Assembly (NCBI GenBank): GCA_965261475.1
Contig: OZ253454.1
Coordinates: 868,001 to 932,000, forward strand
DNA: 64,000 nt
Direction of reading: 5' to 3'
Source of the DNA: G965261475 sp965261475 [NCBI: bacterium]
Lineage (GTDB): Bacteria > SAR324 > XYD2-FULL-50-16
Position numbers and translations under genes: made by a program. This document shows, piece by piece, positions 22,058 to 61,008 of this stretch; position 1 is the first letter of the stretch, and each line of letters starts with the position of its first letter. Below the pieces are notes generated by a model that was given only the letters and a program-made list of their open reading frames with translations, did no database searches and had not been told where the DNA came from.

Positions 22058-22690
22058 CTACCGATAAATTGTGTCATCTCCACCAATTTTTCTAACATCA
22101 TAAATATTAGCCCAAAGAATAGAACCAGTTTGCAAATCTAAAAGCTCAAAAGAAAATTGAAAGTAGTTAGATTTTACTCCTGTTTGGTTAGAGACACCAT
22201 GGATAGAAGTAATTCTAGCTGTCATCCGATATTGTGCTTGTATAAGATCAATATCACTGCCAGAAGTTTGTGCCTCGTTAATGAGAGCTTGTAAATTTTG
22301 ACGAGTTACAAACCGCAATTTTCTTTTTGTTTCTCGTATCAAACTTACCCTCATTCTATCAGCTAACAAGTTAGTATTGATAATATAACTAGATTCATTG
22401 ATAAAGTACTCTCCTTCTAAAACAATAATAGGAGTAGTTTTACTCTCGTGATAAAAATCTGATAACAATAAATCTGCTACAATAGTTTTTGAGATACTAT
22501 TGATATCTTTGGACTCTATACCTAAGCCAGCAAATTTTAAATCTTCATCTACCGCTACCTCTCTTACAGGTATGGCGTCGCTACTAGCAGCGCAAGCATA
22601 AAAAACAAATAGTACCAAAAATAAAAAAAAAATTCTATATACTAAACAAGATTTTGGTTTTCTTACAAGGTATAGTGTTTGCAATTTCAT
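22058..22690 (-). CDS. lpoB: LpoB-like penicillin-binding-protein activator lipoprotein
   Basis: A 210-residue lipoprotein of the LpoB/COG3417 family. In E. coli LpoB is an outer-membrane activator of PBP1b; the function here is by family. The signal peptide is long, with lipobox VFYACAAS (C33). The domain runs through RMRVSLIRETKRKLRFV (about 100-116), ARITSIHGVSNQTG and SFELLDLQTGSILWAN to the conserved end GGDDTIYR. It is the first gene of the unit with COG3014 and lpxC; the CHAT-like gene ends 66 bases upstream. Confidence 0.82.
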   Translation of the reverse strand: MKLQTLYLVRKPKSCLVYRIFFLFLVLFVFYACAASSDAIPVREVAVDEDLKFAGLGIESKDINSISKTIVADLLLSDFYHESKTTPIIVLEGEYFINESSYIINTNLLADRMRVSLIRETKRKLRFVTRQNLQALINEAQTSGSDIDLIQAQYRMTARITSIHGVSNQTGVKSNYFQFSFELLDLQTGSILWANIYDVRKIGGDDTIYR

Positions 22691-28042: not shown

Positions 28043-28686
28043 CTTATAAATTGCAACATTTTAGCTACTACTTGAGCTCTGCTGATACTAGAGCTATCTA
28101 TATAAATAGCATCTTTTGCCTTGATGAGAGGTGCTATTTTTCTGAGCTGGTCTTGCTTGTCTCTAGCTATAATATTTGCTCTAAGTTTTTGATACGCCAA
28201 TTCTGTTGTATTGATATTTTTTTCTGCGGCTCTTCTAGCTGCCCTCACCTCGACGCAAGCGTCTAAATAAAATTTAAAATCTGCGTGAGGAAAAACAATA
28301 GTACCTATATCTCGACCATCTATAACCAAAGAAATTTTAGTTGCAATAGTTCTCATCAAATCATTGACCCATTGCCTACACTCAGGGCAATTAGCAAAAG
28401 ATGTAATCAAAGTAGTAATTTTTTGACTTCTAATTTGCTCCTGAATCAATTCCCCTGCTAAAAATATTTGTTGCTTGCAGTTTTGGTAACAAAAACGAAA
28501 TAAACTAGGATGTTTTTGCAGATAGATAGAAGTTTCGTAAGGTGATAGTTTTTTTTTACTAGCTAGCAAGGCTAAAGAACGATAAAGAGCTCCCGAATCT
28601 AAATGGACATAGCTTAATTTACTAGCCAATAAAGATGCTACCGTGCTCTTACCAGCACCAGCTGGACCATCTATAGCTATCAGCAT
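28039..28686 (-). CDS. cmk: Cytidylate kinase
   Basis: A 215-residue CMP/dCMP kinase. The P-loop is DGPAGAGKST (6-15), followed by LDSGALYRSLAL, the CMP-binding VIDGRDIGTIVFP (about 117-129) and the lid segment RRAAEKN. Its ATG overlaps the rplC stop in a TAATG arrangement, so it is translationally coupled to rplC. In many bacteria cmk is followed by rpsA; here it ends against nadK. Confidence 0.96.
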   Translation of the reverse strand: MLIAIDGPAGAGKSTVASLLASKLSYVHLDSGALYRSLALLASKKKLSPYETSIYLQKHPSLFRFCYQNCKQQIFLAGELIQEQIRSQKITTLITSFANCPECRQWVNDLMRTIATKISLVIDGRDIGTIVFPHADFKFYLDACVEVRAARRAAEKNINTTELAYQKLRANIIARDKQDQLRKIAPLIKAKDAIYIDSSSISRAQVVAKMLQFIS

Positions 28687-29552
28687 TACTTTTTGGAAGA
28701 CTTACGAATCTCTACTAAACGACCTTTGGCGCCGGGAATTGCTCCTTTGACTACCAATAAATTATCTTCTTTTTGAATAGCAACAATCATTAGTCCTTTA
28801 GTTGTAACCCTACTAGAGCCATGATGCCCTGGCATTTTTCTATTTTTAAATACTCTAGCAGGATCAGCAGAGGCGCCGATAGAGCCAGTAGAACGATGAA
28901 AGTGACTACCATGGGTTTTGGGTCCACCGCTAAAATTATGTCTTTTCATCACCCCTGTAAAACCCCTGCCCTTAGAGATGCCAATAACATCTACAAAATT
29001 GCCTACTTGAAAGGCAGCTACATTAAAAAGCTCTCCTACCTTTACTTTGTCTACAACACTTGCTCTCACTTCTCTAACATACCTATAGCCATAGTTTGGC
29101 ATTTGTTTTTGTTGTGCTTTATTTAATTTTTTCTTTTTACTCGCAGAAAGTTCATCAAAACCTACCTGTAAGGCTTCATATCCGTCTTTCTCTAGTATTT
29201 TCTTCTGCAGAATTTCTACAGGACCTAGTTTGACTAAAGTAACAGGGAGGCAATTTCCGTTATCGGTAAAAATTTGAGTCATGCCAATCTTTATTCCTAG
29301 TAAACTTTGAATATTTTGCATATCTTCTGACATTTTTCGCTCAGAAAATTCTTTTTTAACAAGCTGCGTCTTTTCTTGTTCTTTGCTAGCGTCTAATTTT
29401 GCGCTATCTGCACTTGCAGGTTTGTCTTGTTTTTTGCTAGCGTCTAATTTTGCACTATCTGCACTTGCAGGTTTGTCTTGTTTTTTGCTAGAGCCCAGCT
29501 TCACATCCGCTTTGGAAACCCCATCTTCTGTTGCTATTTCTTTGTTATTCAT
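28686..29552 (-). CDS. rplC: 50S ribosomal protein L3 with N-terminal repeat extension
   Basis: A 288-residue reading, against about 210 for normal L3. The canonical protein begins near residue 84 (SLLGIKIGMTQIF) and is complete, with GRGFTGVMKRHNFSGGP, GSIGASADPARVFK and GHHGSSRVT. The extra N-terminus is Lys/Ala/Asp-rich and contains an exact tandem repeat of KKQDKPASADSAKLDAS (23-39 and 40-56). Internal ATGs at 29333 and 29321 could start a near-normal L3, so the extension may not be translated, though it is open and in frame. L3 is expected in the S10 operon next to rpsJ and rplD; here it is alone upstream of cmk. Confidence 0.93.
   Translation of the reverse strand: MNNKEIATEDGVSKADVKLGSSKKQDKPASADSAKLDASKKQDKPASADSAKLDASKEQEKTQLVKKEFSERKMSEDMQNIQSLLGIKIGMTQIFTDNGNCLPVTLVKLGPVEILQKKILEKDGYEALQVGFDELSASKKKKLNKAQQKQMPNYGYRYVREVRASVVDKVKVGELFNVAAFQVGNFVDVIGISKGRGFTGVMKRHNFSGGPKTHGSHFHRSTGSIGASADPARVFKNRKMPGHHGSSRVTTKGLMIVAIQKEDNLLVVKGAIPGAKGRLVEIRKSSKK
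29385..29486 (-). repeat. 51-bp tandem repeat in the rplC 5' region
   Basis: Two copies of a 51-base in-frame unit encode the same 17 residues twice in the N-terminal extension of L3. They differ by a base or two. A partial third unit (AKLDASKEQEK) follows. Repeat-number change would leave the frame intact. Confidence 0.85.
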
Positions 29553-41424: not shown

Positions 41425-42072
41425 TTAGCGAAGTATTTGACCTATACGATATAAATTGTAACCAGAAAAAAAACCTTTTTCTGAATTATGAGACCAAAAC
41501 ACAAACCAACCTTTGCCACGAATAGTGTTTTCGTCCACATATCCCCAGTAACGACTATCTTGAGAATTCCTTCTATTATCTCCCATCATAAAATACTTCC
41601 CTTGAGGTATAATCATAGACGGTAAATCCTGTCCTTTTGGTAAAAAGTTATCTAAGAATTTATAATCTTCTACTAACTCACTACCATTAATATATACAAT
41701 TTCATCTTTAATTTCCAATCTATCTCCTGGTAATCCAATAACTCTCTTAATAAATTTAACTGCAGGCTCTAAAGGATAAGGAAAAATTGCTATATCGTGC
41801 CGCTTAATAGGCGATGTGAAAAATTTTTTTTCGGTAAAAGGAATAACATAGCCGTAGGAGTGCATATTTGCAAATAAAAAATCTCCTTTCTCAATAGTAT
41901 GAATCATAGAGCCAGTAGGGACCCGGTAGGGAGAAAAAAACCAAGTACGAAAAATAGAAACAACAATTAACGCAAATAAAATAGCGTCTATCCACTCTAG
42001 GAGTCCTTGGTGTTTGATGAGTCTATCAATTCTTAAAAATCTAACTATATGTAACTTTTTGATTTTTTTCAT
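41425..42072 (-). CDS. lepB: Signal peptidase I
   Basis: A 215-residue inner-membrane signal peptidase. One N-terminal helix (about 28-46) precedes the catalytic serine S55 in VPTGSMIHT and the base lysine K109 in VKFIKRVIGLPGD, followed by MMGDNRRNSQDSRYWG. Its start lies 32 bases inside the ccmF end in another frame; the next in-frame ATG would remove the membrane anchor, so the overlap appears real. Confidence 0.96.
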   Translation of the reverse strand: MKKIKKLHIVRFLRIDRLIKHQGLLEWIDAILFALIVVSIFRTWFFSPYRVPTGSMIHTIEKGDFLFANMHSYGYVIPFTEKKFFTSPIKRHDIAIFPYPLEPAVKFIKRVIGLPGDRLEIKDEIVYINGSELVEDYKFLDNFLPKGQDLPSMIIPQGKYFMMGDNRRNSQDSRYWGYVDENTIRGKGWFVFWSHNSEKGFFSGYNLYRIGQILR

Positions 42073-44020
42073 GTGTAAATTTATAGCGAAAATAAGGTGA
42101 TTGATAGGAAAAACAAAGCAAGATGCCTATGATAAAAAAAACCAAACTCAAAGGGACAAAAATAACCAAGGGGTTGATGTATAGGGTAACGCTCGCAGAG
42201 TCATCAGAATTGATAGACGCTAAACTAATATAAAAATCTTCGCTCCAAAAACGCAAAATAGCCGCTTCTGTAGTTGGCTCATCAGAAGTAAGATAAAAAG
42301 CTTTAGCAGGCTTTAAAGCTTGGATAAATTTACCATTTTTAAAAATTTGAAAATAGGCTATATGTTGCCTAGCGTTACGAACCTTCTCAAAACTATTACC
42401 AGTATAGGTAACCTTGTAGTCTCCAAACTCCAAGCTTTGGTTAACTTGAAAAGTTAAACTCTGCTCCTTGCCGAAAAAATTACCTAAAATTCCAAATAAA
42501 CACACAACTATTCCTAAATGAATAAGCATAGCGCCAATTGATCTTCTGTTAATAAATTTTTTTTTACCCTGCTCTTTCCTAGTTTTCCATCTCACTCTTT
42601 CTGTAATATAGATTTTGTAAAGCTCTAATAAAATGCAATGAGCTGCAAAGTAGATAGAGCCCGCTAAAAGTATAAATTCTACTCTGTGGCTCAAAAATAA
42701 CCCGCAAAAAATCATCAGCACTACAGACATCAAAGCTGGCAGCCATAAATTATTCCTAATTTTTGTGATATTGGCTTTATTCCAAGCTAAAAACGGAGTA
42801 GCTCCCATCAAAATCATCAGTAAAATTACAATAGGTAGGCTAATTTGCTCAAAAAATGGAGCACCTACAGAAACTTTGCGACTAGCAATAGCTTCTGCAA
42901 CCAAAGGAAAAATAGTACCATAAAAAATTGCAAAAATTAAACCAACAAATAAAATATTGTTTACTAAAAAAGAATTTTCTTTACAAAAAAGGCTAATTAT
43001 TTTGTTGTTGTTCTCTATCAAAGGTAAGCGGTAAAATAATAGTCCAAAACAAATCAAAGCCGTCACGGTTGCAAAAACCAAAAAAGCAGGTCCTATGTTA
43101 GATTGAGCAAAAGCGTGCACTGAGTTTAATACTCCAGAGCGAGTAATAAAAGTGCCTATAATAGTCAATAAAAAAGTAGTAATTATTAAAACATAATTCC
43201 AAATTTTTAAACAATCACGCTTTTCTTGCACCATAGCAGAGTGCAAAAAAGCCGTCGCACCAAGCCAGGGCAGCAAAGAAGAATTTTCCACCGGGTCCCA
43301 CGCCCAGTAGCCTCCCCATCCTAGCTCGTAATAAGCCCACTGTCCGCCAATCATCATTCCTAGGCTCAAAAATAACCAAGCAATCAAAATCCATCTTCTA
43401 CTAATTTGGATCCAATCATTATCCATTTTTTTAGCAAGCAAAGAGCCCATAGCAAAAGCAAAGGGAATACTCAAACCAATAAAACCTAGATAGAGTAGAG
43501 GAGGATGAATAATCATAGCTACATCTTGCAAGACCGGATTGAGCCCTAAGCCTTCGCTAGGAATAGGATAAGCCCTAGCTAGGGGGTTACTCCAGCCAAT
43601 AAGTAAAAAAAGCAAAAACGCCAAAATAAAATTGAGAAAAACCATACTATAGGGTACCAGATAGCAATATTTTTGAGCGTAGGAAAACACAAGAAGTAGG
43701 CTATAAGAAGCTAGAAGTAAAACCCAAAGGAGCAAAGAGCCGTCCATTCCTCCCCAAACCGCAGTAATTTTATAAAAAAAAGGTAAATCGCTACTAGAGT
43801 TATTAGCTACGAATTTGACAGAAAAATCATTTGTAATGAAAGCATAGCTCAAAGATAAATAAGCGCCTGCTACCAAAATCCACAAACCTACTACAGCGCG
43901 CCTGACACTAACTATCAGATTTAAAGATGAGGTAGCTACTCCTAGCAACGAGCCAACAACAGCATAAATACTCAAACAAAATGCTAAAATCAAGCAATAA
44001 TAACCTAGATCTACAACCAT
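42041..44020 (-). CDS. ccmF: Cytochrome c-type biogenesis protein CcmF
   Basis: A 659-residue membrane protein of the heme-handling family, part of the CcmF/CcmH heme lyase that attaches heme to CXXCH proteins such as CtaC. The tryptophan-rich heme-binding segment WAYYELGWGGYWAWDPVEN (about 228-246) is complete, with about fifteen helices. It is the first gene of the run leading to the oxidase. The other ccm genes (ccmA, B, C, E, G, H) are absent here. Upstream lies the repeat-rich spacer of the barrel array. Confidence 0.96.
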   Translation of the reverse strand: MVVDLGYYCLILAFCLSIYAVVGSLLGVATSSLNLIVSVRRAVVGLWILVAGAYLSLSYAFITNDFSVKFVANNSSSDLPFFYKITAVWGGMDGSLLLWVLLLASYSLLLVFSYAQKYCYLVPYSMVFLNFILAFLLFLLIGWSNPLARAYPIPSEGLGLNPVLQDVAMIIHPPLLYLGFIGLSIPFAFAMGSLLAKKMDNDWIQISRRWILIAWLFLSLGMMIGGQWAYYELGWGGYWAWDPVENSSLLPWLGATAFLHSAMVQEKRDCLKIWNYVLIITTFLLTIIGTFITRSGVLNSVHAFAQSNIGPAFLVFATVTALICFGLLFYRLPLIENNNKIISLFCKENSFLVNNILFVGLIFAIFYGTIFPLVAEAIASRKVSVGAPFFEQISLPIVILLMILMGATPFLAWNKANITKIRNNLWLPALMSVVLMIFCGLFLSHRVEFILLAGSIYFAAHCILLELYKIYITERVRWKTRKEQGKKKFINRRSIGAMLIHLGIVVCLFGILGNFFGKEQSLTFQVNQSLEFGDYKVTYTGNSFEKVRNARQHIAYFQIFKNGKFIQALKPAKAFYLTSDEPTTEAAILRFWSEDFYISLASINSDDSASVTLYINPLVIFVPLSLVFFIIGILLCFSYQSPYFRYKFTHEKNQKVTYS

Positions 44021-44381
44021 TTACAGAAAACAAAAACGATAAGAAAAGCACAACCTATCATTGCTGATACTAGCACAAAATAACAAAAAAGCAACAACAA
44101 AACTTCTAGAGCTAGAGCCTGCAGACATTCAAATAAAAGATGAGACTGCTAGCTTACTGGTGATGATTTTATGCTAGCTAGGTTGAGATATTGCAGCAAA
44201 AGACAAGAGAGCTATGAAACTGCTAGCTTACTGGTGATGATTTTATGATAGCTAGGTAAAATATTGCAACAAAAGACAAAAGGGGCTAGAAGTAGCACAT
44301 CTTGCTAGATTGTGCCACCTCGCCAGCCTGAGCGGACAACTACCGGCTAGAGCCTAGCGTATATCGCAAGTTTAATTGCGA
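44021..44381. repeat. Repeat-rich spacer downstream of barrel copy 1
   Basis: No gene is seen. A unit of about 74 bases is tandemly repeated (about 44145-44218 and 44219-44292), both with TGCTAGCTTACTGGTGATGA. The stretch from about 44198 to 44360 recurs almost unchanged at about 45367-45530 and 46560-46722 behind barrel copies 2 and 3. At 44339-44360 there is a vestigial barrel-gene 3' end (ACTACC-GCTAGAGCCTAGCGT), followed 20 bases later by the real gene end. Confidence 0.8.
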
Positions 44382-45077
44382 CTACCAGTTATAGCCTAGC
44401 GTAAGGCTTGTTCTGGTAAGACCGAAATTACCTTTTGTATCAGATAAGGGTATATCAAATGCCCCTACTTTCAGTGTACCGCCTTTAATTTTAATCTCAG
44501 CATCAGAGTCGCGGTAATCAAAACCTAGGGCAAAGCCATTCTCAAAAACACGCCTAGCACCAAAACCGAAATAGGTGCCGCTATCAGATCCTGACAAATC
44601 TAATGTGCCAGAACCCAAAACACTGCCAACTTTGACTTCATAATTGGCACTCACTAGAGCCAAACCTGCACCTGCATAAAAATCTACAACCTGCGATAAA
44701 TCCTCCAAATAATAACGAGCACCTAAAGCCGTCTCGCTAACTCTTAGAATCTCTTCACCCTCTATGCCAGGAATAACTGTCGTAATTTTTACTCCTCCCG
44801 AGAAATAATCTAGCGCGAGCCTGAGTGGATGATCACTGAGCGCAATATCAAACATCAAACCGCGAGTATTTTGAGTATTAAAATCACCTCTACCTGAGAG
44901 CTTGCCCTCAGCACTGCCAGCAGCAAAAGAAAGCGTTTTATTCCTAGCAGAATACTCCTGTGCCAAACATAAGGAGAGCCCACTAGCAAGTAGCAACAAG
45001 CCTACAAAGAGAGCCTTGAGCCTATACGAGTAGTAGTGGAAAAAGGTAGGGGGGGGGTAATTGCAGCAAACAAACAA
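44382..45077 (-). CDS. Outer-membrane beta-barrel protein, array copy 1 (likely OFF)
   Basis: About 230 residues. After a signal-peptide core (RLKALFVGLLLLASGLSLCLAQ) comes a small beta-barrel of about eight strands with RYYLEDLSQVVDFYAGAG, FGFGARRVFENG and GFDYRDSD, ending in the Bam-type aromatic signal LTLGYNW. The continuous frame starts only at a TTG (45077). The conserved ATG seen in copies 4 and 5 is at 45097 (MKTTNIGCLFAAIT), but a run of nine C in the coding strand (45049-45057) puts it out of frame; ten would join it. It resembles OmpW or opacity-type barrels in size, but no family is firmly recognised. Confidence 0.75.
   Translation of the reverse strand: MFVCCNYPPPTFFHYYSYRLKALFVGLLLLASGLSLCLAQEYSARNKTLSFAAGSAEGKLSGRGDFNTQNTRGLMFDIALSDHPLRLALDYFSGGVKITTVIPGIEGEEILRVSETALGARYYLEDLSQVVDFYAGAGLALVSANYEVKVGSVLGSGTLDLSGSDSGTYFGFGARRVFENGFALGFDYRDSDAEIKIKGGTLKVGAFDIPLSDTKGNFGLTRTSLTLGYNW
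45049..45057 (-). repeat. Poly-C (9) tract at the 5' end of barrel copy 1
   Basis: Nine G on the given strand, nine C in the coding strand, between the ATG at 45097 and the signal-peptide core. The frame opens if the tract has 10 (or 7, 13) C. G or C runs of this length are exceptional in this AT-rich sequence. Confidence 0.9.
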
Positions 45078-45097
45078 CCAATATTTGTAGTTTTCAT

Positions 45098-45549
45098 ATA
45101 TTTTATAAAAATTAAATTAAAAAAAACACAAAGCACTAGTGCTTTGAGCCTGTTATGTCTTTGCCAGAAGCAAAAAAACACGACAAGTTCACTTTTTACA
45201 GACAAACAAAAAATAAAGCAAATAAAAGCAAAATTTTTTGCTTTTTTTGTATTTTTATAAAATTGCAGTTTTTAGCTATAAGAGTAAAAAATACAACCCT
45301 TGCTCCATATTCCTCTAGCCTGATGTTACTAGTGATTATTTGTGATGACTAGGTCAAATATTACAACAAAAGACAAGAGAGCTATGAAACTGCTAGCTTA
45401 CTGGTGATGATTTTATGATAGCTAGGTAAAATATTGCAACAAAAGACAAAAGGGGCTAGAAGTAGCACATCTTGCTAGATTGTGCTGCCTCGCCAGCCTG
45501 AGCGGACAACTACCAGCTAGCACCTAGTGTCTTGCCAGCTTGATTGCGA
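45098..45549. repeat. Spacer repeat between barrel copies 1 and 2
   Basis: No gene is supported. The 452 bases are nearly identical to 46292-46741, so copies 1 and 2 with their spacers form tandem units of about 1194 bases. It contains a leader palindrome (45129-45146), a block shared with 44198-44360, and a vestigial barrel 3' end at 45509-45530 just downstream of the gene-2 stop. Open frames on either strand here lack coding features. Confidence 0.85.
45129..45146 (-). promoter_or_regulatory. Leader palindrome of barrel copy 1
   Basis: A perfect 18-base palindrome, CAAAGCACTAGTGCTTTG, lies 32 bases upstream of the conserved ATG. On the gene strand it is followed by TG and eight T, so it could act as an attenuator or terminator hairpin, or as a protein-binding operator. 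Equivalent sites are at 46323-46340 (identical), 48499-48516 (one pair changed) and 47458-47475 (decayed). Confidence 0.5.
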
Positions 45550-46275
45550 CTACCAGCTAGAGCCTAGCGTGAGGCTTGTTCTGGTAAGACCGTAATTATC
45601 TTCACTATCAGGTAATGGTATATCAAATGCCCCTACTTTCACTGTACCGCCTTTAATTTTAATCTCAGCATCAGAGTCGCGGTAATCAAAACCTAGAGTA
45701 AAACCATTCTCAAAAACGCGTCTAGCACCAAAACCGAAATAGGTGCCATTACCAGATCCTGAAAAATTGACTGTGCCAGAACCCAAAACACTGTTAACTT
45801 TGACTTCATAATTGGTACTCACTAGAGCCAAACCTCCGCCTGCATAAAAATCTACAACCTGCGATAAATCCTCCAAATAATAACGAGCACCTAGAGCCGT
45901 CTCGCTAACTCTTAGAATCCCTTCAGCTAACCCACCCGAAACAAATGCCGTTTCTTTATACTCTACTGAGAACGAATCTAGCGCGAACCTGAGGGGCTCA
46001 CCGCTAGAGCCAATATCAAACATAAAACCGCTAGTATTTTGAGTATTAAAATCATCATTACCCAAAGCACTATAATCACCATCATCTGAGAGCTTGCTCT
46101 CAGCACTGCCAGCAGCAAAAGAAAGCGTTTTATTCCTAGCAGAATACTCCTGTGCCAAACATAAGGAGAGCCCACTAGCAAAGAGTAATAAGCCTACAAA
46201 GAGAGCCTTGAGCCTATACGAGTGGAAGTGTAAAAAGGTAGGGGGGGGGGGTAATTGCAGCAAACAAACAACCAA
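45550..46275 (-). CDS. Outer-membrane beta-barrel protein, array copy 2 (likely OFF)
   Basis: About 240 residues and the closest relative of copy 1; the signal core (RLKALFVGLLLFASGLSLCLAQ) and the barrel C-terminal half are near identical, while residues about 50-110 differ most (KLSDDGDYSALGND, YKETAFVSGGLAE). It ends LTLGSSW. The open frame begins at a TTG (46275). The conserved ATG at 46291 (MKTTNIGCLFAAIT) is thrown out of frame by eleven C (46241-46251); ten would join it. The variable middle between constant ends fits surface loops under diversifying change. Confidence 0.75.
   Translation of the reverse strand: MVVCLLQLPPPPTFLHFHSYRLKALFVGLLLFASGLSLCLAQEYSARNKTLSFAAGSAESKLSDDGDYSALGNDDFNTQNTSGFMFDIGSSGEPLRFALDSFSVEYKETAFVSGGLAEGILRVSETALGARYYLEDLSQVVDFYAGGGLALVSTNYEVKVNSVLGSGTVNFSGSGNGTYFGFGARRVFENGFTLGFDYRDSDAEIKIKGGTVKVGAFDIPLPDSEDNYGLTRTSLTLGSSW
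46241..46251 (-). repeat. Poly-C (11) tract at the 5' end of barrel copy 2
   Basis: Eleven G on the given strand. Its site is equivalent to the nine-base tract of copy 1, so two neighbouring paralogues already differ in tract length, each one base from the in-frame value of 10. Confidence 0.9.
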
Positions 46276-46291
46276 TATTTGTAGTTTTCAT

Positions 46292-46741
46292 ATATTTTAT
46301 TAAAATTAAATTAAAAAAAACACAAAGCACTAGTGCTTTGAGCCTGTTATGTCTTTGCCAGAAGCAAAAAAACACGACAAGTTCACTTTTTACAGACAAA
46401 CAAAAAATAAAGCAAATAAAAGCAAAATTTTTGCTTTTTTTGTATTTTTATAAAATTGCAGTTTTTAGCTATAAGAGTAAAAAATACAACCCTTGCTCCA
46501 TATTCTCTATCCTTACACTACTAGTGATTATTTGTGATGACTAGGTCAAATATTACAACAAAAGACAAGAGAGCTATGAAACTGCTAGCTTACTGGTGAT
46601 GATTTTATGATAGCTAGGTAAAATATTGCAACAAAAGACAAAAGGGGCTAGAAGTAGCACATCTTGCTAGATTGTGCTGCCTCGCCAGCCTGAGCGGACA
46701 ACTACCAGCTAGCACCTAGTGTCTTGCCAGCTTGATTGCGA
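46292..46741. repeat. Spacer repeat between barrel copies 2 and 3
   Basis: No gene is supported. Near-identical to 45098-45549. It carries the same palindrome at 46323-46340, the block shared with 44198-44360 (here about 46560-46722) and a vestigial barrel 3' end at 46701-46722 downstream of the copy-3 stop. Confidence 0.85.
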
Positions 46742-47416
46742 CTACCAGCTAGAGCCTAGCGTGAAACTTGTTCTGATAATACCGTCACTATTTTTAAAAA
46801 ACACAAATCTAGATCCTTGAATTTGAAACTCAGCATTAGAATTGCGGTAATCAAACCCTATACTCAAGCCATTCTTAAAAACTCGTCTAGCACCGAGACC
46901 GAAATAGGTGCCACTACCAAAACCTGAAAAATATTCTTTGCTAGAGCCCGCAACACTGTTAACTTTGACTTCAATATTGGCATTCACTCGAACCAAACCT
47001 CCGCCCAGATAAAAACTTAAACCTGACGATAAATCCTCAAAATAGTGACGAGCACCTAGATCTCGCTCAGTAACTGTTAGAATCACTTCAACTTCCCCAC
47101 CCGAAATCTCTACCGTCTCTTTAATTCCTCCCGAGAAATAATCTAGCGCGAACCTGAGTGGCTCACCACTAGAGCCAATATCAAACATCAGCCCGCGAGT
47201 ACTTTGAGTATTAGTAGTAGCTCCACTTGGGAACTTGTCTTGAGCACTACCAGTAGCAATAACAAAGGATGCTGTTTTATTCCCAGCGAAATACTCCTCT
47301 GCTAAACATAAGGGCACACTACTAGCAAATAGTAACAAGCCTACAAAGAGAGCCTTGAGCATATACGAGCGCAAGTAGGAAAAAAAGAGTAAGAAATAAT
47401 TGTAGCAAATAAACAA
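46742..47416 (-). CDS. Outer-membrane beta-barrel protein, array copy 3
   Basis: About 224 residues in the open frame. An in-frame ATG at 47362 gives a self-sufficient signal peptide (MLKALFVGLLLFASSVPLCLAEE), so this copy might be made without its leader. The conserved upstream ATG is at 47433 (MQDVKSCLFATIIS), which a run of seven T (47380-47386) leaves one base out of frame; eight would join it. The barrel has RHYFEDLSSGLSFYLGGG, GLGARRVFKNGLSIGFDYRNSN and ends LGSSW. The middle segment (SGGATTNTQSTRG onward) differs from the other copies. Confidence 0.75.
   Translation of the reverse strand: MFICYNYFLLFFSYLRSYMLKALFVGLLLFASSVPLCLAEEYFAGNKTASFVIATGSAQDKFPSGATTNTQSTRGLMFDIGSSGEPLRFALDYFSGGIKETVEISGGEVEVILTVTERDLGARHYFEDLSSGLSFYLGGGLVRVNANIEVKVNSVAGSSKEYFSGFGSGTYFGLGARRVFKNGLSIGFDYRNSNAEFQIQGSRFVFFKNSDGIIRTSFTLGSSW
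47380..47386 (-). repeat. Poly-T (7) tract at the 5' end of barrel copy 3
   Basis: Seven A on the given strand, at the same leader position as the poly-C tracts of copies 1 and 2. Short A/T runs are common in this sequence, so on its own it would be unremarkable; the conserved position and the one-base frame offset make it notable. Confidence 0.6.
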
Positions 47417-47433
47417 CTTTTTACATCTTGCAT

Positions 47434-47767: not shown

Positions 47768-48475
47768 CTACCAGCTATAGCCTAGCGTTAAGCTTGTTCT
47801 GGTAAAATTTAAATAATCTTTTGATAAGAGTAAAGGTACTGAGCCTGTTTCTAAATTGCTTTTAAGTTCAAATCGAGTATTAGAATCACGGTAATCAAAC
47901 CCTATACTCAAGCCATTCTTAAAAACATGTATAGTACCAAATCCTTGATACACACCACTACCAGACCCTGAAAAATCTCCTTGAACAGGTCCCAAAGCAG
48001 TGATAAATTTATATTCATAATTAGCACTCGCTAGAGCTAAACCTCCTCCTACATAAAAATCTGCAACCGGCGATAGATCATCAAAATAGTAACGAGCGCC
48101 TAGGTCTATTTCTATAATTCGTTGAGTTGCTAAATATTCTGGGCTCTCGCTAAACATTATAACCCGACTGCTAGAAAACCAATCTGCCGCAAGCCTGAGA
48201 GGTCTAGCACCAGATCCAATATCAAACATAAACCCACGATTAGTTTGAGTACCAGAATGATCTTCACCTAGACTCAACTTACCACTAGCACTGCCCGCAA
48301 CTAAAGAAAATGTTGTCTTTCTAGCAAAATGCTCCTGCGCTAAACATAACGACGACCAGCTAACAAGTAGTAATAAGCCTACTAATATAACCTTTAACCT
48401 ACACGAGCGTAAATAGAAAAAAAAAAAATAGATGGGAGCTGTAGCAAATAAACAACCAATTTTTGTAGTTTTCAT
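47768..48475 (-). CDS. Outer-membrane beta-barrel protein, array copy 4 (in frame)
   Basis: 235 residues from a true ATG at 48475 (MKTTKIGCLFATAPIYFFFF), continuous into the signal core (RLKVILVGLLLLVSW, SLCLAQ). The T12 run (48417-48428, coding strand) is in frame, so the leader is translated. The barrel carries RYYFDDLSPVADFYVGGG, YQGFGTIHVFKNG, GFDYRDSN and ends LTLGYSW. Its 3' end is of the type found as the vestigial end behind copies 1-3. Paralogue of copy 5, with which it shares the segment EYLATQRIIEIDLG. Confidence 0.82.
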   Translation of the reverse strand: MKTTKIGCLFATAPIYFFFFYLRSCRLKVILVGLLLLVSWSSLCLAQEHFARKTTFSLVAGSASGKLSLGEDHSGTQTNRGFMFDIGSGARPLRLAADWFSSSRVIMFSESPEYLATQRIIEIDLGARYYFDDLSPVADFYVGGGLALASANYEYKFITALGPVQGDFSGSGSGVYQGFGTIHVFKNGLSIGFDYRDSNTRFELKSNLETGSVPLLLSKDYLNFTRTSLTLGYSW

Positions 48476-48794
48476 ATATTTAAATTAGTTAAAAAAAACA
48501 AAGTACTAGTGCTTTGAAACTTATTCGCAAGCTTTGGCAAAAAAATAAAACCTAACAAGCAGAGGTATAAGTTAAGTAAAAAATTATTTTCTTTTTTATT
48601 TATAATCTATGCAATTATGATAGTTTTCAAATAGTGAGTAAAACAATACAATCCCTACTTCAAATTTTCCCTAGCTTGGTATTACTAATTATTATTTATG
48701 GCAGCTAGGTAAAAAATTTTAATCAAAAAACAACCTGTGGGGTATCGGTTACATCTTGCCAGTACACTAACTTATAGCAAGCTTGATAGTGTAG
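48476..48794. other. Spacer between barrel copies 4 and 5
   Basis: 319 bases with no supported gene. A diverged member of the array spacer family. The leader palindrome of copy 4 is at 48499-48516 (CAAAGTACTAGTGCTTTG) and is followed on the gene strand immediately by eight T. Confidence 0.7.
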
Positions 48795-49475
48795 CTACCA
48801 GCTATAACCTAATGTAAGGCTTGTTCTTGTGAGACCAAAATTATCTTTTGGCAAGAGCAAGGGTACTGAGCCTGTTTCTGAGTTTCTTTTGAGCTCAAAC
48901 TGAGCGCTAGAGTCGCGGTAATCAAACCCTAGAGTCAAACCATTGTTAAAGACGCGTCTAGCACCAAACCCTTGATAAACACCTCTGCCAGATCCTGAAA
49001 AATCTCCTTTGCTAGCATCAAGAATATTCTTAAATTCATATTTATAATTGGCACTAACTAACGCCAAACCTCCTCCTATATAAAAATCTGCAGCTGAAGA
49101 TAAATAGTCAAAATAATAACGAACACCTAGGTCTAATTCTATAATTTGTAGAGTTGCTAAATATTCGTAGCTTGAAGTAAATGACATTATAGCATCCTTG
49201 CTAGAAAACCAATCTACCGCTAACCTGAGCGCCTCATCACTAGACGCAACATCAAACATAAATCCACGAGTGCTTTGAGCACCAACCCCATCTTCTATTC
49301 CAATGATAGAAAATGTTTTATTTCTCACAGAACGCTCTTGCGCTATACACACAAAAAATCCACTAGCAAGTAATAATAAGCCTACAGATAAAGTTTTAAG
49401 CCTACATAGGCGGAAGCAGAAAAAAAAAGAGTTAAAAGTAATTGCGAATAAACAGCCAAGTTTTATATCTTTCAT
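48795..49475 (-). CDS. Outer-membrane beta-barrel protein, array copy 5 (in frame)
   Basis: 226 residues from the ATG at 49475 (MKDIKLGCLFAITFNSFFF), reading through a T9 run (49430-49438) into a signal core (LKTLSVGLLLLASGFFVCIAQ). The barrel part has RYYFDYLSSAADFYIGGG, YQGFGARRVFNNG, GFDYRDSS and ends LTLGYSW. It lacks the leader palindrome. Its 3' end (stop context TAGCAAGCTTGATAGTG) is of the type joined to copies 1-3. It is the most diverged and outermost copy, followed upstream by dapF. Confidence 0.82.
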   Translation of the reverse strand: MKDIKLGCLFAITFNSFFFCFRLCRLKTLSVGLLLLASGFFVCIAQERSVRNKTFSIIGIEDGVGAQSTRGFMFDVASSDEALRLAVDWFSSKDAIMSFTSSYEYLATLQIIELDLGVRYYFDYLSSAADFYIGGGLALVSANYKYEFKNILDASKGDFSGSGRGVYQGFGARRVFNNGLTLGFDYRDSSAQFELKRNSETGSVPLLLPKDNFGLTRTSLTLGYSW

Positions 49476-49656: not shown

Positions 49657-50496
49657 TTAAAAATTACAATCTCCTACAAATACCTCTAGAGGTCGCCCCT
49701 TTAGAGTTAGTCTATCTTTGCTATAAGATACCAAAAGCTCTCCTCCGCGTAGCCTAACTAGCAAGTTACTATCTGTTTTTTTTGTCAAGTAGCCTGCAAC
49801 ACAAACAGCACAAGCTCCGCTGCCACAAGCCCAAGTTTCTCCACTACCTCGCTCCCAAGTCCTTTGCATAACCTCTTTGCGATTTATAATTTGTACAAAT
49901 TCAATATTGATACCCTGAGGAAAAAATTTGTGTTTTTCAATCATACTACCCCACTTCCTTACAGGAGTAGTTGTGAGATCTGCTACAAAAACTACAAAAT
50001 GAGGGTTCTGCAGAGCTACCAGGCTACCGCAAAGCTTCAAATCGCCAAAAGAAAATTGCTCTGCTAAAAACTGTTCTTTTTGAGCTCTTTTTGCTGCTTG
50101 TAAAAAATCACCCATTTGCAAACTAGGGTTTGTTACTTGCAAACCTACTTCGACTACTAGCCCTAGTTGATCTAAAAAAACTTGCACTAGATAGCACTTC
50201 TTTGCAAACTGAATCGTAAATTGTTTTTGTATCAAGGCTGTTTTTTCAAAAAGATATTTTGCTACACAAAAAATAGCATTACCACACATCGCAGATTCGC
50301 TACCGTCTGAGTTAAACATCCTCATACTTCTAGCCGTGCTATCTATGATAACTAGTCCATCACTACCTATTCCATATCTGCGATGACTAATTTTTTTTGC
50401 TAAAGCCCCAAGGCTTGCAGAGTGTCGCTGGGCTAATTGCTCGGCTTCAATATAAATATAATCATTGCCTGCACTTTGCATTTTGGTAAATTTCAT
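49657..50496 (-). CDS. dapF: Diaminopimelate epimerase
   Basis: A 279-residue DapF that interconverts LL- and meso-diaminopimelate for lysine and peptidoglycan. The catalytic pair is C71 (SAMCGNAIFC) and C224 (ETWACGSGAC), and the N-terminal QSAGNDYIYIE is typical. The spacer to barrel copy 5 (49476-49656) and the 236 bases downstream of its start toward the permease gene hold nothing recognised. Confidence 0.96.
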   Translation of the reverse strand: MKFTKMQSAGNDYIYIEAEQLAQRHSASLGALAKKISHRRYGIGSDGLVIIDSTARSMRMFNSDGSESAMCGNAIFCVAKYLFEKTALIQKQFTIQFAKKCYLVQVFLDQLGLVVEVGLQVTNPSLQMGDFLQAAKRAQKEQFLAEQFSFGDLKLCGSLVALQNPHFVVFVADLTTTPVRKWGSMIEKHKFFPQGINIEFVQIINRKEVMQRTWERGSGETWACGSGACAVCVAGYLTKKTDSNLLVRLRGGELLVSYSKDRLTLKGRPLEVFVGDCNF

Positions 50497-60606: not shown

Positions 60607-61008
60607 GGGGATGATAAGGATTCGATTGATTTTAATGAAATAGAAAAGCAAGTAGTGGTTCGTCGAGATGGTGCCACTTAAAAAAATCGGCAATAAATAA
60701 ACGCAAAAAATAGCGATTATCAATTAAACGGAGTAGCATTAGCCGCTTAGTTTAATTATTCTTTGTTTTTACTTCAGTGATTTAAAAATAAAGACATGGC
60801 AAAACGGGACGCTTGATAAGTTTTGCTATGTAAATTATCGAGCTATATTTTTTGTTGGTGTAACAGCGATAAAAAATGAATTCTTTCTGTAACATTTGGT
60901 TTGACAGCTCTGATGACCAGCAAGCAAGCCAAAAAATTAAGGTCGTCTAAACTTGTAGAAAGCTATGGACTTACAAGCAAGACCCGGGTTCGATTCCCGG
61001 CATCTCCA
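60607..61008 (+). ncRNA. ssrA: Transfer-messenger RNA (one-piece tmRNA)
   Basis: The ends form a tRNA-Ala-like domain: acceptor GGGGATG pairs with CATCTCC, with one G-U pair, and the T arm reads CGGGTTCGATTCCCG. The resume codon GCA is at 60703-60705 after AATAAATAAAC. The tag reads AKNSDYQLNGVALAA and stops at TAG (60748-60750). It ends in the ALAA type that ClpXP recognises. It rescues stalled ribosomes with SmpB, which is not in the window. Length about 400 nt is in the normal range. Confidence 0.96.

What the first reader, a model, noticed from the sequence alone, without database searches (positions are those of the whole stretch)
44382..46291. Poly-C tracts put two outer-membrane barrel genes one base out of frame: likely phase variation
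Copies 1 and 2 share a leader whose ATG (45097 and 46291) is followed by MKTTNIGCLFAAIT and then a run of C. The signal-peptide core lies in a different frame. The in-frame length is 10 (or 7, 13); copy 1 has 9 and copy 2 has 11. So both are one base from ON, on opposite sides, and differ from each other. Long C runs are otherwise absent from this AT-rich sequence. Slipped-strand mispairing of such tracts in surface genes is the established mechanism of phase variation.
Basis: partly seen in the sequence, partly recalled or inferred. Interest (0 to 1): 0.82.

Follow-up and report, generated by a model that had tools for sequence, protein, structure and literature searches.

The report
Slippery-tract switches before five surface barrels
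A bacterium that could not be placed carries five neighbouring outer-membrane barrel genes with long single-letter DNA runs near their starts, two of them poly-C runs that leave the gene one letter out of frame; this looks like a surface on/off switch of a kind known from Neisseria and Helicobacter, but switching itself has not been shown here.

Summary
Copies 1 and 2 have C9 and C11 runs 40 nt into the reading frame of homologous ATGs. Each is one base from an in-frame length (7, 10, 13), on opposite sides; no other G/C run in the window exceeds 5. They belong to a tandem family of five. Copies 4 and 5 have T12 and T9 runs at the same place and are in frame from the homologous ATG, their only in-frame start, which supports the leader start. 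Copy 3 (T7) is one base out but has a downstream in-frame ATG. All five mature parts are open, their indels are multiples of three, and differences concentrate in predicted surface loops of an OmpA/OmpW-like barrel. c1 and c2 are nearly identical for about 230 nt before the tract (79% identical in the mature protein), yet the tracts differ by two. Best explanation: a simple-sequence contingency array, Opa-like in anatomy, switching barrels by tract slippage. This is inferred: no reads, strains or relatives were available. Rivals: decaying duplicates, assembly error, TTG or downstream starts, slippage during expression. New member of a known kind, in a divergent unplaced organism.

The parts
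44382..45097 (-). c1: leader ATG to barrel stop; leader one base out of frame with the barrel (716 nt)
   Evidence: Pfam PF13505 E 5e-7
45049..45057 (-). C9 tract of c1 (in-frame lengths 7, 10, 13)
45550..46291 (-). c2: leader ATG to barrel stop; leader out of frame in the other direction (742 nt)
   Evidence: PF13505 E 3e-4 (below cut-off)
46241..46251 (-). C11 tract of c2 (in-frame lengths 7, 10, 13)
46742..47433 (-). c3: leader ATG (MQDVKSCLFA) one base out of frame; in-frame ATG at 47362, 8 codons before the hydrophobic core
   Evidence: PF13505 E 0.004 (below cut-off)
47380..47386 (-). T7 run of c3 at the homologous place
47768..48475 (-). c4: in frame from the homologous ATG (235 codons)
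48417..48428 (-). T12 run of c4, the longest homopolymer of the window
48795..49475 (-). c5: in frame from the homologous ATG (226 codons)
49420..49428 (-). T9 run of c5
45129..45146 (.). palindrome CAAAGCACTAGTGCTTTG followed by T-rich DNA, 32 nt before the c1 ATG; role unknown
46323..46340 (.). the same palindrome before c2

Best explanation
Five tandem genes encode paralogous outer-membrane barrels with variable surface loops. Each starts at a homologous ATG, and the first ~25 codons, before the hydrophobic signal core, hold a homopolymer (C9, C11, T7, T12, T9). Slipped-strand mispairing during replication would change the run by a base and so connect or disconnect the ATG from the signal peptide and barrel, switching copies independently. 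As assembled, c4 and c5 are ON, c1 and c2 are OFF in opposite directions, and c3 is off from its leader but may start at an internal ATG. Shown from sequence: tracts, frames, homologous starts, open downstream ORFs, loop-concentrated differences, a tract difference between copies with near-identical upstream DNA. Inferred: that tract length varies in the population, that expression follows, and the surface role.
For: Frame scan: full ORF at 7, 10, 13 C in c1 and c2. c4 and c5 have the leader ATG as their only ATG/GTG/TTG in the barrel frame before the signal core, with an in-frame stop 4 and 2 codons upstream. C runs of 9 and 11 where no other G/C run passes 5 and 0.02 are expected. Run of 9 or more in nt 31-70: 4 of 5 barrels, 2 of 50 other listed ORFs, p 0.0002, or 0.013 with c1=c2 and c4=c5 merged. 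c1/c2: one substitution and one base in an A run over 231 nt before the tract, against a two-base tract difference. No stop in 5 of 5 mature ORFs; mature-part gaps multiples of three in 10 of 10 pairs. Differences concentrate in predicted surface hairpins, 0 of 183 circular shifts reach the contrast. Published meningococcal data: G/C tracts are half of the strong candidates and runs of 8 or more were mostly variable (PMC5084427, passages).
Against: No length variation within a population seen; c1 and c2 are two loci of one assembly. Directly after the tract c1 and c2 differ at 6 of 60 positions and the mature proteins are 79% identical, so their history is more than a tract change. dN/dS of 0.6-0.8 for several pairs also fits relaxed constraint. 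A/T runs are common (35 of 9 or more in the window), so T9 and T12 alone are weak evidence. c3 has only T7. In-frame TTG codons upstream of the core exist in c1, c2 and c3.
Confidence: 0.68

Rival explanations
1. c1, c2 and c3 are redundant duplicates at the start of pseudogene decay; the leader indels are inactivating accidents at a mutation-prone run, and c4 and c5 do the work.
For: Three of five copies are out of frame from the leader; dN/dS of c1-c3 pairs is 0.63-0.81 against 0.36 for c4/c5.
Against: No stop in the mature ORFs of c1-c3, and all mature-part indels are multiples of three in 10 of 10 pairs; a C9-C11 run is itself unexpected.
Confidence: 0.12
2. Assembly or sequencing error: the true tracts are in frame, and lengths 9 and 11 are miscalls or a consensus over mixed reads.
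For: Homopolymers are the usual place of such errors; the source platform and coverage are unknown. A mixed population would itself be phase variation.
Against: Eight A/T runs of 9-10 lie inside family-matched stretches of Der (3), IspH, LpxC, Cmk, the ThiF-family gene and CcmF, and the frames are intact. No C run offers the same control.
Confidence: 0.08
3. Start-site or promoter reading: translation of the OFF copies begins at an in-frame TTG (c1 45077; c2 46263 or 46275) or, in c3, at ATG 47362, so the tract sets level or N-terminus, or lies in untranslated DNA, as the poly-G of Treponema TprL does.
For: The TTG and ATG codons exist; some family-matched ORFs start at TTG in the mechanical list, e.g. 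NusA and LpxC; Shine-Dalgarno-like motifs are rare in this window (3 of 56 rows); precedent PMC7864442 (passages).
Against: c4 and c5 offer only the leader ATG. In c1 and c2 the single start codon after the tract is, in c1, a TTG inside the hydrophobic core, and none in c2. The TTGs before the tract would give different N-termini in c1 and c2.
Confidence: 0.09
4. The frame is restored during expression, by RNA polymerase slippage or ribosomal frameshifting on the run, so all copies are always made.
For: Slippage on long A/T runs occurs in bacteria (PMC5574713, passages).
Against: In that study every insertion within a homopolymer run in E. coli and Buchnera lay in an A or T run, and no transcription error restoring a frame was found. 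c1 and c2 need shifts in opposite directions.
Confidence: 0.03

Closest known systems
Neisseria Opa family
   Same: Several paralogous outer-membrane barrels with variable loops; repeat in the signal-sequence region sets the reading frame of each gene (PMC13183285, PMC3960869, passages). Opa being an 8-stranded barrel is recalled.
   Different: Pentamer CTCTT repeats, dispersed loci; here homopolymers, one tandem array, no Opa family match. The published excess of out-of-frame copies concerns copies over 95% identical; c1 and c2 are 79% identical.
Helicobacter pylori outer-membrane proteins (SabA, HopZ, OipA, BabA)
   Different: CT dinucleotide repeats; different barrel proteins
Neisseria pilC (poly-C/G tract in the reading frame)
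   Same: C/G homopolymer (listed as G 9-20) inside the coding region gives on/off switching (PMC5953494, passages); position in the signal-peptide region is recalled
   Different: Pilus-associated protein, two genes, not a barrel array
Neisseria Opc and Treponema pallidum TP0126/Tpr promoter tracts
   Same: C/G homopolymer controls a surface barrel; TP0126 is called an OmpW homolog (PMC3960869, PMC7864442, passages)
   Different: The tract lies in the promoter, not in the coding leader

Membership tests
Simple-sequence contingency locus switched by translational frameshift | Repeat tract of about 8 or more units inside the 5' coding region | tested here: met
   C9, C11, T12, T9 in 4 of 5 copies; c3 has T7
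Simple-sequence contingency locus switched by translational frameshift | Change of tract length by one unit alternates a full and a truncated ORF | tested here: met
   Frame scan of all five copies
Simple-sequence contingency locus switched by translational frameshift | Tract length varies between cells or strains | not testable with these tools
   No reads or strains; the only hint is C9 against C11 in two loci
Simple-sequence contingency locus switched by translational frameshift | Expression follows tract length reversibly | not testable with these tools
   Needs culture or fusions
Neisseria Opa family | Pentamer CTCTT repeats in the leader | tested here: not met
   Homopolymers instead
Neisseria Opa family | Sequence match to the Opa family | tested here: not met
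   Pfam at E up to 0.01: 5 of 5 copies match OMP_b-brl only
Neisseria Opa family | Eight-stranded barrel fold | tested here: inconclusive
   Model pLDDT 73, near OmpA, OmpW, NspA; Opa itself not among the 50 rows shown
Pfam OMP_b-brl (PF13505) | Score above the curated cut-off of 28.7 bits | tested here: inconclusive
   1 of 5 above it (c1, 30.4); the other 4 at 17.8-26.4 bits, E 9e-6 to 4e-3

The most novel reading that the evidence does not exclude
An Opa-like phase-variable surface repertoire arose independently in a deep, undescribed bacterial lineage, with a whole tandem barrel array under leader-tract control, and with the slippery element itself turning over at one site from poly-T (leaky, if RNA polymerase slips on T there as in E. 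coli and Buchnera) to poly-C (a tight switch) in c1 and c2.
Probability: 0.3. Interest if true: 0.65.

Novelty: new member of a known kind. Interest (0 to 1): 0.48.

Why it matters
If true, independent switching of a small barrel repertoire by leader tracts extends to a divergent, unplaced bacterium and hints at pressure from a host, phage or predator. T and C tracts at one homologous site would make it a natural test of how the tract's base sets switching rate and leakiness.

Tried and rejected
Relatives of the barrels: genome contigs with the profile (81 pattern matches, none confirmed), viral contigs (65, none confirmed), plasmids with c4 (no match), PDB sequences (4 hits at E up to 1, best 0.026, a fimbrial subunit; not credible), 41 genomes of the order of the best IF-2 genome (0 of 41; the tool warns that an empty answer shows nothing). 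NCBIfam gave nothing for c1, c4 and c5 (0 of 3).

Placement of the organism: GcvP found 116 confirmed stretches of 129, best 80 kept, 50-55% identity over mixed phyla. IF-2 reached at most 43% among the listed rows in 299 Pseudomonadota and 61 Bacteroidota genomes (lists cut off), best score in Pseudomonadota. Best Der matches were 29-31% in 10 genomes. It stays unplaced.

Structure: the model with the leader was useless (pLDDT 34.5); the mature part gave 73, with residues 1-29 below 50. In one search the signal core of c5 was mislocated, so its leader length and start list there are wrong; one search replaces them. The palindrome as main regulator was set aside: hairpins of -8.8 kcal/mol fold in c1 and c2 only, 16 and 15 of 200 shuffles do as well, and terminator-like sites in the region are fewer than in shuffles (2 against 5.1). 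Sigma-70-like sites were also no more than chance (9 against 14.0).

Synonymous against nonsynonymous changes in the 13 leader codons were too few to test coding constraint.

Papers: PMC2846917, PMC13183285, PMC3960876, PMC5084427, PMC3960869, PMC5574713, PMC5953494 and PMC7864442 were seen as passages, none read whole; other papers only as search listings. Searches near the theme of a homopolymer leader switch in a barrel family and in uncultured symbionts (no paper) showed no such array in their listings; this proves no absence in print.

Full report
What is there. On the minus strand between ccmF (42041-44020) and dapF (49657-50496) lie five tandem paralogs, c1 to c5. The finding covers c1 and c2. 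Both begin MKTTNIGCLFAAIT, run 40 nt into the frame into C9 (45049-45057) and C11 (46241-46251), and continue into a hydrophobic signal core and a barrel that lie in another frame. Full ORFs arise at 7, 10 or 13 C in both; the observed lengths stop after 31 and 25 codons. No other G/C run in the window exceeds 5, and a first-order estimate expects 0.02 runs of 9 or more.

Is the leader ATG the real start? The in-frame copies answer this. c4 and c5 carry homologous leaders (MKTTKIGCLFA, MKDIKLGCLFA). Their ATGs are the only ATG/GTG/TTG in the barrel frame before the signal core, with an in-frame stop 4 and 2 codons upstream. They too have a run at the same place, T12 and T9; c3 has T7. ATG-to-stop length modulo 3 is 0 for c4 and c5, 2 for c1 and c3, 1 for c2. 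As assembled, two copies are ON, c1 and c2 are OFF in opposite directions, and c3 is off from its leader but has an in-frame ATG at 47362, 8 codons before its core.

Is the position special? A run of 9 or more within nt 31-70 occurs in 4 of 5 barrels and 2 of 50 other listed ORFs (p 0.0002; 0.013 when c1=c2 and c4=c5 are merged, which left out one row whose start was not a start codon; the ORF list is mechanical and mostly not curated). A/T runs alone are weak evidence: 35 of 9 or more exist in the window, 31 of them inside listed ORFs, c4 and c5 included.

Do the tracts change? Over 231 nt before the tract c1 and c2 differ by one substitution and one base in an A run, yet the tract differs by two. 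So length changed since these flanks were last shared, by duplication or gene conversion. This is indirect, from one assembly. After the tract they differ at 6 of the next 60 positions, and the mature proteins are 79% identical. General homopolymer error is unlikely: eight A/T runs of 9-10 lie within family-matched stretches of Der, IspH, LpxC, Cmk, the ThiF-family gene and CcmF with frames intact. No C run gives the same control.

Are the OFF copies alive? None of the five mature ORFs has a stop, and dN/dS is 0.36-0.81 over 10 pairs, 0.63 for c1/c2 and 0.36 for c4/c5; the higher values also fit relaxed constraint. Mature-part gaps are multiples of three in 10 of 10 pairs. The mature protein is modelled as a barrel (pLDDT 73, pTM 0.66, five sequences), which I read as eight barrel strands with short strands in the last loop. 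Nearest folds are OmpA (9fzd, Z 17.1, 167 aligned, rmsd 2.5), OmpW (2f1v, 16.2, 175, 3.1) and NspA (1p4t, 15.8, 150, 2.6) among 997 chains aligned; Foldseek's best is OmpW at E 5e-6. With the N-terminus taken as periplasmic (usual for such barrels, recalled) and zones set by me from the model's strands, differences concentrate in the surface hairpins: 30 of 106 against 10 of 78 for c1/c2, higher in 10 of 10 pairs, and 0 of 183 circular shifts reach the contrast.

Mechanism. The most likely reading is a contingency array: replication slippage changes tract length, which connects or disconnects the ATG from signal peptide and barrel, so cells differ in which barrels they show. Shown from sequence: tract, frame, start homology, open downstream ORFs. 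Inferred: variation in the population, effect on expression, surface role. In E. coli and Buchnera, transcriptional insertions within runs lay only in A/T runs (PMC5574713, passages), so a poly-C tract might give a tight OFF state while T tracts leak; this is inference.

Rivals. Decay of duplicates, assembly error, use of TTG or downstream starts, and slippage in expression are not excluded. The start-site rival has support: in-frame TTGs occur in c1, c2 and c3, some family-matched ORFs start at TTG in the mechanical list, such as NusA and LpxC, and Shine-Dalgarno-like motifs precede only 3 of 56 listed ORF rows. Against it, c4 and c5 leave no choice but the leader ATG.

Comparison. It works like Neisseria Opa, where repeats in the signal-sequence region set the frame of several paralogous genes (PMC13183285, PMC3960869, passages). 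It is not an Opa member: homopolymers instead of CTCTT and no Opa match. Helicobacter outer-membrane proteins with CT repeats (PMC3960876) and pilC with a poly-C/G tract in frame (PMC5953494) are further precedents. In meningococci G/C tracts are half of the strong phase-variation candidates and runs of 8 or more were mostly variable (PMC5084427). Hence a new member of a known kind.

Limits. The organism is unplaced and divergent: IF-2 at most 43% identical in the listed rows, Der 29-31% in 10 genomes. No relative of the barrels was found, no own genome is held, and reads are not available. The claim of phase variation rests on anatomy.

Noticed in passing
45129-45146, 46323-46340, 48499-48516: An 18-bp perfect palindrome CAAAGCACTAGTGCTTTG followed by a T run, 32 nt before the ATG of c1 and c2; one mismatch before c4, decayed before c3, not found before c5. 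Operator, attenuator or terminator.
   Followed up: partly
whole window: Shine-Dalgarno-like motifs precede only 3 of 56 listed ORF rows (one row's start was not a start codon): the organism may initiate largely without them.
   Followed up: no
whole window: Rich in A/T homopolymers: 35 runs of 9 or more, 31 inside listed ORFs, mostly A on the coding strand.
   Followed up: partly
22058-22690: LpoB-like gene (Pfam PF13036) with a T10 run 58 nt after its start, in frame.
   Followed up: no
44143-46794: Intergenic DNA after c2 and c3 is 96% identical over 290 nt (45313-45602 and 46505-46794), and c1/c2 upstream DNA is nearly identical while the coding parts differ more: recent duplication or gene conversion within the array.
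   Followed up: partly
60607-61008: One-piece tmRNA with tag AKNSDYQLNGVALAA in an organism whose IF-2 and Der are far from the genomes searched.
   Followed up: partly
28686-29552: 288-aa ORF whose residues 179-263 match the ribosomal L3 profile (PF00297, E 3e-17), next to cmk.
   Followed up: no
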